A stretch of 64,000 nucleotides of DNA from a candidate division LCP-89 bacterium. Its GTDB lineage: Bacteria > Electryoneota > B3-LCP. The first letter of the stretch is position 1. Each line of letters begins with the position of its first letter. The notes below the pieces were generated by a model that did no database searches, was not told where the DNA came from, and saw only the letters and a program-made list of their open reading frames with translations. Positions 12,638-30,029 of the stretch are shown one piece after another. A program made the position numbers and the translations under genes. The stretch is taken from positions 1-64,000 of the forward strand of contig JALGVT010000003.1 of assembly GCA_025774555.1 (NCBI GenBank). The letters run 5' to 3'.

Positions 12638-14032
12638 TCAGGAGATCAATTGACGACTGGGCGGAATGCCCAGCTGCTTCATTTTACGGTGATAGTTCTG
12701 ACGAGGCAGACCTGCGGTGATCGATGCCTTCGTGACACTGCCGTTATGTCGCTGCAGGTTTTCAACCAGGTATCTACGCTCGAATTCCTGCCGCGCTTCT
12801 CTGATTGGAAGATTGAGCATCTCGGATATCCAGTTTCTGCGGCGTGGAATAGAATCACCTGCCAAATCTTCACTTGTGAGTGGGGATCCGTTGGAGAGAG
12901 CAACTGCCCGCTCTATTATATTTTCCATCTCGCGCACGTTGCCCTGCCATTCATGGTCATACAGGTAGTCCATCGCGTCAGCCGTGATGTCGCAGGCAGG
13001 ACATTTGAATGCCTTAGCATATTTATCGACGAAATAACGCGCTAATAGAGGAATGTCCTCGCGGCGGTCTCGAAGTGGGGGTAGTGTAACTGTAATCACA
13101 TTCAGCCTGAAATATAGATCATCTCTAAAATTACCCTTCTTTACCTCTTTCTTGAGATCCTTATTTGTTGCCGCTATAAGCCGAACATCCGCTCGTATCT
13201 CCTGATCGCCGCCAATTCGCCGAAACAAATGTTCCTGCAATACGCGCAGCAGCTTCACCTGTAAAGACATTGGCGTATCACCGATCTCATCCAGAAACAG
13301 AATTCCTCCTTCAGCCTCCTCAAAGTAACCGCGGCTGCGACGAATCGCTCCCGTGAAAGCGCCCTTCTCATGCCCAAAAAGGAGCGATTCCAGCAGGGTT
13401 TCCGGCAGACCCCCACAGTTCACACTGACAAACGGTCCATGCGATCGTTTGCTGTAGCGATATAAAGTGCGAGCCATCAGATCTTTGCCTGTACCCGTTT
13501 CACCTTGAATGAGAACAGTCGTGGGAATCGGCGCGACTCGCTTGATTAAAGAGAAAACCTCCTGCATTAAAGGACTGGCGCTGATTAAACCGTCAAGAGC
13601 GAATCTCTCTTCGAGTTGCTGCCGTAAAAGGCGGTTCTCCATACGCATAGCTGCGGCATCAACCAGTCGTTTAACGAGCAGCTGAATCTCTTCCAATACT
13701 CTAAATGGTTTCTCTATGTAATCTTCTGCACCCAGTTTCATCGCCTGAACCGCCATCTGGATATTGCCATACGCGCTCATCATTAAAACGGCAGTTTCCG
13801 GCGTCGCCTTCTTTATTTGAGGCAGCAATTCGAGTCCTGATATTTCCGGCATCTTTATATCGAGCAGCACGAGTTCGCAGGTCTCCGAACGTACTTTCTC
13901 CAAACCTTCAAAAGGATTCGTACTCCAATCGATAATCCATTCCTCTGAAGCTAAAGCTTCAGCCAGTAGAATGCAGATGTCGGCTTCATCGTCTATAATG
14001 TGAATATGCGCGCGACGCACAAGATGCCTCAT
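12638..14032 (-). CDS. NtrC-family sigma54-dependent response regulator
   Basis: The protein has 464 residues from the ATG at 14032, which has GGAG at 11 bases; an in-frame ATG at 14065 would add 11 residues. The receiver domain has the acidic pair D14/E16 region, phospho-acceptor D58 (LLDIKMPE) and K108 (EKPF). The AAA+ domain has Walker A GETGTGKD (177-184) and the sigma54-contact loop GAFTGA (224-229). A Fis-type HTH ends the protein ([21 protein letters not shown]). It would open sigma54 promoters after phosphorylation. It sits directly upstream of the major pilin like PilR in other bacteria, but no sensor kinase is next to it. The DNA between it and the pilin carries palindromes and a sigma54-like site. 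Confidence 0.92.
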
Positions 14033-14108
14033 GTTAAATACATCTCCGTATCTAATATCGGTCATCCTGCTTCAAATTGGTAGTTTTTAGAAGGAAATTA
14101 TGAGGGAT

Positions 14109-27108: not shown

Positions 27109-27822
27109 TTAACGATCTATCAAGTAACGCATATCTTCAACAGCCTTGGTCAAGCCCACAAAAGCCGCCCTCGAAATAACTGAATGACCGATGTTCAGTT
27201 CTTTTATCTCTGCGATGGTGGTAACGTCCATAGTATTATGGTAATTCAATCCGTGACCTGCGGCGACGAAAAGCCCCATCTTCTCAGCCGCAATGGCTGC
27301 CCCCGCCAGATCATCGAGCGCTATTTCACGGGATGCTTCATCTTTGGTTTCCGCGTAACTGCCGGTGTGCAGTTCAACAGCCTGAGCGCCTATTCTTGCC
27401 GATTCCTTGATCACAGCGAGGTCCGGATCGATAAATAGACTGACTTCGATCCCGGAGCTGTTCAGCGTTTCAATGGCGTCTTTTAATTTCGCAGAGTGCG
27501 CGAGAACGTCCAGACCGCTCTCGGTCGTTCTCTCTTCGCGTTTCTCAGGCACAATGGTGCAGATTTCTGGTTGGATCAGGAGAGCTTTCTCAATCATCTC
27601 CTGCGTTGCAGCCATTTCCATGTTCAAACGGCTGTGAATCACCTTGCGGATCAGCTCGAGGTCGCGGTCCTGAATGTGCCGCCTGTCTTCCCGCAGGTGG
27701 CAGACGATACTGTCCGCGCCTGACTGATCGGCTAAAATCGCCGCCGCAACAGGATCGGGTTCAACTCCGCCTCGAGCCTGACGAAGCGTGGCGATGTGGT
27801 CAACATTAATTCCAAGTTTCAT
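27109..27822 (-). CDS. pdxJ: Pyridoxine 5'-phosphate synthase PdxJ
   Basis: The protein has 237 residues, full length. The N-terminal GINVDHIATLRQARGG, HLREDRRHI, NMEMAAT, CTIVPEKREERTTESGLDV and VAAGHGLNYHN motifs match PdxJ closely. It joins 1-deoxyxylulose 5-phosphate and 3-amino-2-oxopropyl phosphate to form pyridoxine 5'-phosphate, the last ring-forming step of DXP-dependent vitamin B6 synthesis. Its presence implies the PdxA/PdxJ route rather than PdxS/PdxT. It follows a small lipoprotein gene by 16 bases. Confidence 0.97.
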   Translation of the reverse strand: MKLGINVDHIATLRQARGGVEPDPVAAAILADQSGADSIVCHLREDRRHIQDRDLELIRKVIHSRLNMEMAATQEMIEKALLIQPEICTIVPEKREERTTESGLDVLAHSAKLKDAIETLNSSGIEVSLFIDPDLAVIKESARIGAQAVELHTGSYAETKDEASREIALDDLAGAAIAAEKMGLFVAAGHGLNYHNTMDVTTIAEIKELNIGHSVISRAAFVGLTKAVEDMRYLIDR

Positions 27823-27838
27823 GATCTATTTCCAAACG

Positions 27839-28354
27839 TTAGAAGTATGAATTATCTTTCCAGGTTATAATCCTGAAGCGGTCATTTTCTTCTTTGAATA
27901 CCGTGAACTGCGCCAGACCGTAAAGGTCGTAATAAGAACCGCCTGCCGAACCGTAAATGGACAGGTTGAAACTGACGTTGAATTCGAGGCTGGAATCTTC
28001 AAAGGCAAATTCCTGGATATTACCTGCCACCGCATACCAGGTCAGGTGAATCTCATCGAAATTGCGGAACAGTCCGCCGGTGGTCTTTAAATCCGTATCC
28101 CTGCCCCACTGGTCATCGCGGGCGTTTTCCACGTCGTAAAAAAGGAACGTGAAATTATCATCAAGACAGTCCGAATAGCGCAGTGAATCCCGCAGGTTAT
28201 AGGAATTACGGAAGTTGTCAAGCAGTTCACCAACCGTCTGCTGATCTGTCCAGAGCGATTCTGATGGATCGCCCAGAACCGGAGCGAAGGGATTCAGGCA
28301 GCCGGTGATTAAAAACATAGCAGAAAGCAGTATTGCTATAAGAGAATATCTCAT
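27839..28354 (-). CDS. Small lipoprotein A, function unknown
   Basis: The protein has 171 residues with lipobox FLITGC (Cys19). The mature part begins with NPFAP and has a helix (TVGELLDNFRNSYNLRDSLRYSDCL) followed by beta strands ending in RFRIITWKDNSYF, a layout like SnoaL/NTF2-like folds. The start ATG overlaps the stop of the upstream DUF3226 gene in an ATGA. A second lipoprotein at 30046-30630 has a similar plan, including a Y..C motif in the same place, so the two may be paralogues separated by an inserted cassette. Confidence 0.65.
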   Translation of the reverse strand: MRYSLIAILLSAMFLITGCLNPFAPVLGDPSESLWTDQQTVGELLDNFRNSYNLRDSLRYSDCLDDNFTFLFYDVENARDDQWGRDTDLKTTGGLFRNFDEIHLTWYAVAGNIQEFAFEDSSLEFNVSFNLSIYGSAGGSYYDLYGLAQFTVFKEENDRFRIITWKDNSYF

Positions 28355-28968
28355 AGAGATTCCAGAAATGTTTTTATCTCTGAAAATGCCTGATGATCGA
28401 AGCCCCAGTAGCCGCTTTTTGCTGCTGATTCACCAAGGCGAAGGCTTGGATCTTCTTTTACTGAAAGGTAAGTATATATCTGAGATTTTGCTAAGTTTTT
28501 AGTTTTGAATGCTTCTTGTTCTCGCATGCAATTATAGTATGTATCGACACAATTGATAAGTCTATTATCAATACTCTTTGCGAAAACATCTTCGAGCATT
28601 CCTTGATCCTCATTATTCGGGAGAATCATAACAGTTACATTCGGTGTGTCACTTGTAGAGATCATTGGTTCCTGTGGGACTGGAAGATTTGCGTCACTTA
28701 GAGCACCGCAAATACTTGCCCATGTGTCGTCAAAACTCTCGTCAGCATCTCTAATAATACCAACCGAATAAACGTTATCTCTAAAAGAGTCGTTTATAGA
28801 GATCGCTTTAAGGTTCGGTCGCATGTTGTGTTTCCCGCCCGCCTCTCGAACTTCAATATCTTGGATATTCCAAGCAGAAAAGAGCGAATTCAAAATATTC
28901 ACTTCATCCATACCCTCAACGAGAACTAACTTTGCTTTGCTGATAGGTTCCTGTTTCTCTCTATTCAT
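28351..28968 (-). CDS. DUF3226-like TOPRIM protein, partner of AAA ATPase
   Basis: The protein has 205 residues. The N-terminal LVLVEGMDEVNIL places Glu18 as in TOPRIM domains, and GIIRDADESFDD gives the acidic pair D74/D76. This is the pattern of DUF3226 and related OLD-type TOPRIM nucleases. The gene starts two bases after the ATPase stop, so they form one unit. AAA plus TOPRIM pairs (OLD, PARIS AriA/AriB, Gabija-like) act in phage defence, where the TOPRIM part degrades nucleic acid once the ATPase is triggered. Defence here is inferred from family and pairing. Base composition is clearly AT-richer than its neighbours. Confidence 0.72.
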   Translation of the reverse strand: MNREKQEPISKAKLVLVEGMDEVNILNSLFSAWNIQDIEVREAGGKHNMRPNLKAISINDSFRDNVYSVGIIRDADESFDDTWASICGALSDANLPVPQEPMISTSDTPNVTVMILPNNEDQGMLEDVFAKSIDNRLINCVDTYYNCMREQEAFKTKNLAKSQIYTYLSVKEDPSLRLGESAAKSGYWGFDHQAFSEIKTFLESL

Positions 28969-28970
28969 TG

Positions 28971-30029
28971 CTACCGCACCTCCAGACCCATTTCAGCAGA
29001 AGCGTTAAGCATTTCCCAATCCAGACCTACGGCTTCAATCCTTTCATCTTTCCGTCTTAATCTGAAGAATTTGAATTCATCTTCCCCAACACCTTCAAAA
29101 GCCTGCCTTGCAGCCTCAACGCATTCATCGCTGTGTGTGGTTGCGAAGACCTGGACATTATTCTCGTCTGCTATATCATAGATTGCTCTCCATACTTTTA
29201 CCATATTTTTATGATAAAGACCATTCTCGATTTCATCTATGAGAACAATACCTTCAGATGAGTTTAAGATTGCGAGGATTATATTCAATAATCTGTTAAT
29301 ACCATCACCAAGTGCAAAGATTGGAAGAAGTTTTTCATCACCTATATCACCCCATATGATTGATTCTGATCCAAGTAGGAGTACAGAAAGGCTTCTCAGG
29401 TTAGGTTCAATCTCATTAAGATACTTTATTAGCTGTTTTTCCCGCTTCTCCTTTGCCAAATTACCAAAAAGCTTAGCATTATCTGAGTGTTTCGTGCGTG
29501 TTCTTGCGCCAATAAAATGACCATTAGGGCGATGAATGTCCTTTTTCGATTGGAACTGGATACCCTCGGATACTGGGAAAGCTCTGGTTGCCAAGTGTTT
29601 CTTATTCTTCTCTATATATTCCTTCTGTAGATTGAGAACGGAAGATGTATCCGCTAACATTTCCTGGATATTCTCCTGTCCATTTTTGGTGACATACTTC
29701 CCTGAAAGCGTCGTTAGTGCAATTTTTATTGTTCTTGGAATATCTGAGTCATCTATTGTAGATATTTTTATTTTATTTTGCAAGTCTGATTTATAAAATA
29801 ATGAACCCCAGATTTCCTTTGGATTATTTCCGAAATCCTCTAATCCTCTCATAGTGTTGATCCGAAGTTCTAAAGTTGGATTACTCGGTCCCTGTTGAAG
29901 GAAAAGCGCTTCAAGCAGCGAGGTCTTCCCAACATTATTCTTTCCTACAATTAAATTGACTCTTCCCAGTCCTTCAATCGTGAAGTCCTTGAACAGTCGG
30001 AAATTTTTGATTTCGATTGATTTATACAT
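28971..30029 (-). CDS. AAA15-type (SMC/OLD-like) ATPase of a putative defence pair
   Basis: The protein has 352 residues. Walker A is GKNNVGKT (29-36) in the setting VNLIVGKNNVGKTSLLEALF; a GDGINRLL signature-like motif is at 241-248; Walker B IVLIDEIENGL (261-271) and the switch THSDE (His299) follow. The sequence matches the AAA ATPases found as the first gene of OLD/PARIS-like systems and has no DNA-binding domain of its own. AGGAGG lies six bases before the ATG. Local GC in two sampled 60-base stretches was about 35 and 23 %, compared with about 55 % in a similar sample of pdxJ, which suggests horizontal origin. Confidence 0.8.
   Translation of the reverse strand: MYKSIEIKNFRLFKDFTIEGLGRVNLIVGKNNVGKTSLLEALFLQQGPSNPTLELRINTMRGLEDFGNNPKEIWGSLFYKSDLQNKIKISTIDDSDIPRTIKIALTTLSGKYVTKNGQENIQEMLADTSSVLNLQKEYIEKNKKHLATRAFPVSEGIQFQSKKDIHRPNGHFIGARTRTKHSDNAKLFGNLAKEKREKQLIKYLNEIEPNLRSLSVLLLGSESIIWGDIGDEKLLPIFALGDGINRLLNIILAILNSSEGIVLIDEIENGLYHKNMVKVWRAIYDIADENNVQVFATTHSDECVEAARQAFEGVGEDEFKFFRLRRKDERIEAVGLDWEMLNASAEMGLEVR

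What the first reader, a model, noticed from the sequence alone, without database searches (positions are those of the whole stretch)
28351..30029. AT-rich AAA ATPase plus DUF3226 TOPRIM pair, a likely defence cassette
The two genes are two bases apart. The ATPase has SMC/OLD-type Walker motifs and a switch His; the partner has Glu and DxD positions of TOPRIM nucleases. Paired AAA and TOPRIM proteins (OLD, PARIS, Gabija-like) are known anti-phage systems. Sampled GC here is about 23-35 % against about 55 % in pdxJ. The pair may be a less studied variant, since DUF3226 rather than DUF4435 is the partner.
Basis: partly seen in the sequence, partly recalled or inferred. Interest (0 to 1): 0.75.

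Follow-up and report, generated by a model that had tools for sequence, protein, structure and literature searches.

The report
Split OLD-type ATPase–TOPRIM defence pair
Two genes that look horizontally acquired, an OLD/SMC-type ATPase and a TOPRIM-fold nuclease-like protein, sit between two housekeeping genes; this pair recurs as a fixed unit across bacteria and archaea and is already listed, untested as far as I could find, as an anti-virus defence candidate (PDC-M38).

Summary
In detail: an intact ATPase gene (28971-30029, -) and a DUF3226 gene (28351-28968, -) lie 2 nt apart. GC is 39-40 %, not 23-35 %, but their GC3 (34-36 %) is the lowest of all 54 window ORFs (others at least 40 %). Five of five same-family genomes have the flanking lipoprotein genes and pdxJ contiguous without the pair, so it looks like a clean insertion. 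The ATPase is an OLD/SMC-type ABC head (nearest solved folds TsOLD, GajA, retron Eco8). The partner is a divergent TOPRIM with the acidic set E18, D74, D76, E126 and K161. The ATPase-DUF3226 order is nearly invariant in about 150 loci from many phyla, and the pair is the main cargo of 3.8-4.7 kb Klebsiella/E. coli/Salmonella plasmids. PADLOC already lists it as candidate PDC-M38A/B. The best reading is abortive-infection-type defence in which the ATPase senses infection and controls a toxic TOPRIM nuclease, working like PARIS and AbiL. It fails the partner test for membership in either. New extra: the ATPase C-terminal E-V-R is near-invariant, and its codons carry the Shine-Dalgarno site of the DUF3226 gene. 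Trigger, substrate and anti-phage activity are undemonstrated.

The parts
28971..30029 (-). OLD/SMC-type ABC ATPase, 352 aa (PADLOC AbiLi / PDC-M38A profile match; sensor/regulator in the proposed model)
   Evidence: ORF; Pfam AAA_15 2.6e-29, AAA_21 3e-23; PADLOC AbiLi 1.5e-67, PDC-M38A 7e-61, AriA 1.9e-30; model pLDDT 90.9, best PDB folds TsOLD 5e-13, GajA 9e-13, retron Eco8 2e-12
28351..28968 (-). DUF3226 TOPRIM-fold protein, 205 aa (PDC-M38B; putative nuclease effector)
   Evidence: PF11536 2.3e-36; PDC-M38B 8.4e-18; model pLDDT 95.7; BpOLD TOPRIM and PARIS asymmetric unit at ranks 2-3 of the PDB search, E about 0.016 only
29922..29945 (-). ATPase Walker A GKNNVGKT (residues 29-36)
   Evidence: G29, N31, K35 in 69/69 relatives
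29232..29249 (-). ATPase Walker B IVLIDE (residues 261-266)
   Evidence: D265, E266 in 69/69
29133..29135 (-). ATPase switch His H299 (THS)
   Evidence: 69/69
28974..28982 (-). ATPase C-terminal E350-V351-R352
   Evidence: E and R in 69/69 alignment members, V/M/I mostly at 351
28977..28983 (-). GGAGGTG, Shine-Dalgarno-like site of the DUF3226 gene lying inside the E-V-R codons
   Evidence: window junction CTGGAGGTGCGGTAGCAATG; tail Glu codon GAG in 63 of 76 relatives against 26.7 expected from each gene's own usage, P = 2e-19
28915..28917 (-). DUF3226 E18, TOPRIM Glu (E22 at +4)
   Evidence: 68/68; matches BpOLD E400/E404 spacing
28741..28749 (-). DUF3226 D74-A-D76, TOPRIM DxD
   Evidence: D74 68/68; D76 as D 46, E 18, N 4
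28591..28593 (-). DUF3226 E126, candidate second-metal ligand (like BpOLD E508)
   Evidence: 67/68; BpOLD site from PMC6755086
28486..28488 (-). DUF3226 K161, candidate catalytic lysine (like BpOLD K562)
   Evidence: 67/68; PMC6755086
30046..30636 (-). Left-hand host flank: small lipoprotein-like gene (lipoA), not part of the cassette
   Evidence: conserved next to lipoB and pdxJ in 5/5 same-family genomes lacking the pair
27839..28354 (-). Right-hand host flank: lipoprotein-like gene (lipoB); its ATG overlaps the DUF3226 stop (ATGA); not part of the cassette
27109..27822 (-). pdxJ, host gene
   Evidence: 68-77 % identical in 5 same-family genomes

Best explanation
A mobile two-gene immune module of the split-OLD kind. 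The ATPase assembles as a ring or multimer that binds and restrains the DUF3226 TOPRIM protein. An infection signal, probably a phage protein or phage interference with host nucleic-acid processing, changes the ATPase's state and frees or activates DUF3226. DUF3226 then cuts nucleic acid (RNA such as tRNA, or DNA) by two-metal chemistry, stopping growth before phage release. Shown here: the fixed pairing, co-inheritance, signs of horizontal spread, mobile-element carriage, conserved ATPase and TOPRIM residues, and a ribosome-binding site for the effector inside the ATPase gene. Inferred: ATPase-TOPRIM binding, the trigger, the substrate and the anti-phage outcome.
For: Profile homology to defence proteins: the ATPase matches AbiLi 1.5e-67 and AriA 1.9e-30; of 68 DUF3226 relatives, 16 match AriB (best 9e-6), 11 AbiLii (2e-5), 16 mad4 (8e-7) and 42 OLD-like_TOPRIM (best 9e-7). 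Fold of the ATPase: TsOLD, GajA, retron Eco8. Active-site set conserved: E18, D74, E126, K161 in at least 67/68, parallel to the BpOLD two-metal site (PMC6755086). Unit behaviour: 78 of 80 ATPase relatives have DUF3226 sequence in the locus, nearly always directly downstream; about 70 DUF3226-anchored loci have the ATPase directly upstream; ATPase and DUF3226 tree distances correlate (Spearman 0.57 against permutation maximum 0.27). Mobility: empty site in 5/5 relatives; lowest GC3 of the window; phyla interleaved in the tree; main cargo of 3.8-4.7 kb plasmids; beside an integrase in a viral contig. Patchy: 41/194, 14/201, 9/197 over cut-off, 9/248 genomes in four phyla. Precedents: AriA hexamer sequesters AriB, a tRNase (PMC12409363); ATPases paired with TOPRIM toxins in neutralisation assays (PMC10440598); F. 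nucleatum AbiLii toxic in E. coli (PMC3985639).
Against: No activity data exist for DUF3226 in the papers searched. Neighbour genes in relatives are mostly housekeeping and only a few are defence genes, so there is no clear defence-island signal (no baseline was computed). Fold search of DUF3226 gives TOPRIM nucleases only at E about 0.016 with low TM. An archaeal OLD-family ATPase, Cran1, works in the cell cycle rather than in defence (abstract of PMC12796447), so not every OLD-type ATPase is immune. For F. nucleatum AbiL no antitoxicity of AbiLi was seen, so ATPase-as-antitoxin is not universal.
Confidence: 0.62

Rival explanations
1. A plasmid- or chromosome-maintenance (addiction) toxin-antitoxin pair: DUF3226 is a toxin neutralised by the ATPase, selected for its own retention rather than for phage defence.
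For: Main cargo of tiny ColRNAI/rop-type plasmids; two coupled genes; OLD-type ATPases paired with TOPRIM toxins in toxicity-neutralisation assays (PMC10440598). In about 8 of 78 ATPase-found loci the ATPase is intact while DUF3226 is broken or missing.
Against: The ATPase is far larger than usual antitoxins and shows no DNA-binding domain; spread across archaea and bacteria in chromosomes at housekeeping sites gives no obvious post-segregational benefit. The broken-partner asymmetry (about 8/78 against about 3/72) is small and confounded by how loci were found.
Confidence: 0.17
2. An anti-plasmid or DNA-targeting system: the TOPRIM protein cleaves invading DNA directly, like OLD/Gabija/Wadjet JetD, without host suicide.
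For: Closest ATPase folds are TsOLD and GajA; BpOLD TOPRIM among top fold matches; GajA-type TOPRIM profiles match a few relatives.
Against: The pair itself lives on small plasmids; separate-gene architecture matches PARIS and AbiL more than OLD/Gabija; no helicase partner.
Confidence: 0.14
3. A non-immune cellular function, for example DNA repair or RNA processing, lost in relatives.
For: Some OLD-family ATPases have cellular roles (Cran1, abstract of PMC12796447); the cassette lies co-oriented within a run of housekeeping genes.
Against: Absent from all 5 same-family genomes at the site and DUF3226 is absent from those genomes altogether; patchy everywhere; no recurrent housekeeping neighbour (most common families 3 of 133).
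Confidence: 0.07

Closest known systems
PDC-M38 (PADLOC-DB v2 candidate system, M38A + M38B)
   Same: Both genes match: M38A 7e-61 and M38B 8e-18; 69/69 ATPase relatives and 66/68 DUF3226 relatives match
   Different: Nothing found; it is a candidate label without a described mechanism in the papers I could search
AbiL (AbiLi/AbiLii, Lactococcus)
   Same: ATPase matches the AbiLi profile over its full length (1.5e-67); two-gene ATPase + TOPRIM layout; AbiLii is described as TOPRIM_OLD/RloB-like (PMC10440598)
   Different: Partner of this window does not match AbiLii or RloB at E<=1 (PADLOC and Pfam); only 11/68 relatives reach AbiLii weakly
PARIS (AriA/AriB)
   Same: ATPase + separate TOPRIM; ATPase matches AriA 1.9e-30; PARIS structures appear at ranks 3 and 15 in the DUF3226 fold search
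   Different: Partner is DUF3226, not DUF4435/AriB (no AriB match for the window protein); ATPase matches M38A/AbiLi far better
OLD class 1/2 and Gabija GajA
   Same: ATPase head fold, TOPRIM acidic set plus a lysine
   Different: Two separate genes rather than one chain; no GajB helicase; position equivalent to BpOLD T506 is Met/variable
PH0156, PDB 2p62 (hypothetical protein)
   Same: Best and only convincing solved-structure match of the DUF3226 profile (E 9.6e-6, profile positions 13-96)
   Different: Uncharacterised; match covers only the N-terminal half

Membership tests
PDC-M38 (PADLOC candidate) | adjacent M38A ATPase and M38B DUF3226 proteins | tested here: met
PARIS | AriA-type ATPase | tested here: inconclusive
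   AriA profiles 1.9e-30/2.5e-27, but AbiLi and M38A score much higher
PARIS | AriB / DUF4435 TOPRIM partner | tested here: not met
   window protein has no AriB or DUF4435 match at E<=1, only AriAB 0.017; 16/68 relatives reach AriB at E<=0.01
PARIS | Ocr-type trigger and tRNA-Lys cleavage | not testable with these tools
   needs experiment
AbiL | AbiLi ATPase | tested here: met
   1.5e-67, residues 1-352
AbiL | AbiLii (RloB-like) partner | tested here: not met
   no match for window protein; 11/68 relatives weakly
OLD class 1/2 | ATPase and TOPRIM in one chain | tested here: not met
   separate ORFs
OLD class 1/2 | TOPRIM two-metal residue set | tested here: inconclusive
   E18, E/D22, D74, D76, E126, K161 conserved in the order of BpOLD E400, E404, D455, D457, E508, K562 (PMC6755086); T506 equivalent not conserved; E126 and K161 were placed by order, not by superposition of structures
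Gabija | GajB UvrD-like helicase next to GajA | tested here: not met
   flanks are lipoprotein-like genes
Toxin-antitoxin pair | toxicity of one protein neutralised by the other | not testable with these tools
   needs expression assay

The most novel reading that the evidence does not exclude
ATPase-DUF3226 pairs form their own class of split-OLD immunity, distinct from PARIS and AbiL. It would have its own trigger and nucleic-acid target, be spread over bacteria and archaea, and use the ATPase's near-invariant C-terminal E-V-R both as a functional tail (possibly the contact to DUF3226 or to the neighbouring ATPase) and, at the DNA level, as the ribosome-binding site that couples effector synthesis to ATPase synthesis.
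Probability: 0.4. Interest if true: 0.55.

Novelty: new member of a known kind. Interest (0 to 1): 0.42.

Why it matters
It gives a widespread 'domain of unknown function' (DUF3226, found in roughly 4-21 % of sampled genomes in four phyla) a concrete, testable role as the TOPRIM effector of a two-gene immune unit. It also names natural 3.8-4.7 kb enterobacterial plasmids from which the pair can be taken for study in laboratory E. coli.

Tried and rejected
Alignment A1 was too diverse for pattern scans. No paper in the library mentions DUF3226 or PDC-M38. AbiLii was sought in 350 Bacilli: none rang, with no positive control, so uninformative. Phage record collection: no match for either protein. 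No target-site duplication or flanking repeat was found at the junctions. Universal-synteny core function was rejected. Defence-island context was weak in the window (the only other notable PADLOC match is an RtcR/PspF-type regulator profile) and in relatives. The asymmetry 'effector broken more often than ATPase' was not pursued because the counts are small and biased by search mode. lipoA and lipoB looked like paralogues by eye but show no BLASTP similarity. The two PARIS structure papers are not held. Structure search of DUF3226 against viral models gave only weak matches, several of them TOPRIM primases and one RloB-like protein. Complex prediction of ATPase with DUF3226 was not possible and coevolution analysis was not attempted.

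Full report
What is there. Two minus-strand genes, an ATPase of 352 aa (28971-30029) and a DUF3226 protein of 205 aa (28351-28968), are separated by 2 nt. Pfam names the second DUF3226 (2.3e-36) and the first AAA_15/AAA_21. GC is 39-40 %, not the 23-35 % reported, and pdxJ is 52 %. The two genes nevertheless have the lowest GC3 of the 54 ORFs in the window (0.34, 0.36; next 0.40).

It is an insertion. In all five same-family genomes held, the upstream lipoprotein-like gene (lipoA), the downstream one (lipoB) and pdxJ are contiguous. Aligning the joined flanks of the window with those empty sites places the cassette in the short gap between the lipoA stop and the lipoB start; no repeat or target duplication marks it. 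Loss from five relatives is possible but less economical than one gain. The DUF3226 stop overlaps the lipoB start (ATGA), so lipoB translation may now be linked to the cassette. The same-family genomes have no DUF3226 match anywhere, and the ATPase has no paralogue in its own genome.

What the proteins are. AlphaFold2 with 69 aligned sequences gives a confident ATPase model (pLDDT 90.9) whose nearest solved folds are TsOLD, Gabija GajA, SMC/Rad50 heads, retron Eco8 and PtuA: an OLD/SMC-type ABC ATPase. DUF3226 (pLDDT 95.7) ranks the BpOLD TOPRIM region and the PARIS asymmetric unit second and third, but only at E about 0.016 with low TM. Sequence profiles are clearer: of 68 family members, 42 match OLD-like_TOPRIM (best 9e-7), 16 mad4, 16 AriB and 11 AbiLii. 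Conservation in the 68 gives E18 68, D74 68, D76 D/E 64, E126 67, K161 67, with an acidic residue at E22 in 52. The BpOLD two-metal site is E400, E404, D455, D457, T506, E508 plus K562 (PMC6755086); the order and the four-residue spacing of the first two agree, the T506 position does not. That DUF3226 is an active nuclease is therefore likely but unproven. C140 and C147 are near-invariant in this main group but absent from the plasmid and outlying relatives; their role is unknown.

The pair is one unit. Of 80 ATPase relatives from GTDB species genomes, 78 have DUF3226 sequence in the locus, typically starting within a few bases of, or overlapping, the ATPase stop; L077 runs off its contig, L080 lacks it, and L046 has only a distant fragment. 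Searching from the other side with PF11536, nearly every strong match in the phyla of L040 (Cyanobacteriota, 41/194 genomes), L028 (Chloroflexota, 14/201), L037 (Methanosarcinales archaea, 12/197, 9 over cut-off) and L085 (Bacteroidota, 9/248) has the ATPase directly upstream (counts include the centre genome). ATPase and DUF3226 tree distances correlate (0.57, permutation maximum 0.27), while phyla are interleaved in the ATPase tree (26 changes, minimum 16, shuffled mean 40.5). The window sequence does not group with the other Electryoneota copy (L061).

Mobile carriage. In PLSDB, 135 plasmids encode a relative of DUF3226, mostly Klebsiella, typically 4,167 bp. The examined small plasmids hold the pair plus replication, mobilisation or regulatory genes and little else; 9 of 5,426 E. 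coli genomes carry it, all on plasmids. One viral contig carries the pair near an integrase and phage polymerase genes, there with the ATPase frame interrupted.

The E-V-R tail. E350 and R352 are present in all 69 aligned ATPases. At DNA level the Glu codon is GAG in 63 of 76, against 26.7 expected from each gene's own usage (P = 2e-19), which creates GGAGG or a close match just before the DUF3226 start; in the window it reads CTGGAGGTGCGGTAGCAATG. The protein motif persists with either codon and where the start is further away, so I infer two overlapping constraints, on protein and on translation.

Mechanism and comparison. In PARIS the ATPase AriA forms a hexamer that sequesters the tRNase AriB until infection (PMC12409363). 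OLD-type ATPases paired with TOPRIM toxins have been tested in toxicity-neutralisation assays (PMC10440598), and an AbiLii homologue is toxic in E. coli though its AbiLi did not neutralise it (PMC3985639). I therefore favour an ATPase-gated TOPRIM nuclease with an abortive outcome (0.62). Formal membership: PDC-M38 met; PARIS and AbiL not met on the partner; OLD and Gabija not met on architecture. The class was already flagged by PADLOC, so novelty is modest; the mechanism is open.

Noticed in passing
28974-28983 and L028-L107 ATPase 3' ends: Near-invariant ATPase C-terminal E-V-R whose codons hold the Shine-Dalgarno site of the next gene (GAG 63/76 against 26.7 expected).
   Followed up: yes
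L017 (4,167 bp), L016 (3,793 bp), L194 (4,693 bp): Small ColRNAI/rop-type enterobacterial plasmids whose main cargo is the ATPase-DUF3226 pair.
   Followed up: partly
L031, L045, L067, L059, L073, L097, L046, L080: ATPase intact but DUF3226 frameshifted, deleted or missing; could reflect a costly effector, but sampling is biased and the count is small.
   Followed up: partly
window 28549-28551 (C140) and 28528-28530 (C147): Two near-invariant cysteines on one helix in the main DUF3226 group, absent in plasmid relatives; role unknown.
   Followed up: no
L108 4956-5624 and 7290-8417: Viral contig with the pair beside an integrase; ATPase frame interrupted.
   Followed up: partly
window 28351-28354: lipoB start codon overlaps the stop of the inserted DUF3226 gene, so a host gene may have become translationally linked to the cassette.
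   Followed up: partly
window 12641-14065: Probably the ORF behind the PADLOC RtcR/PspF-type profile match in the window; looks like an ordinary NtrC-type response regulator.
   Followed up: no
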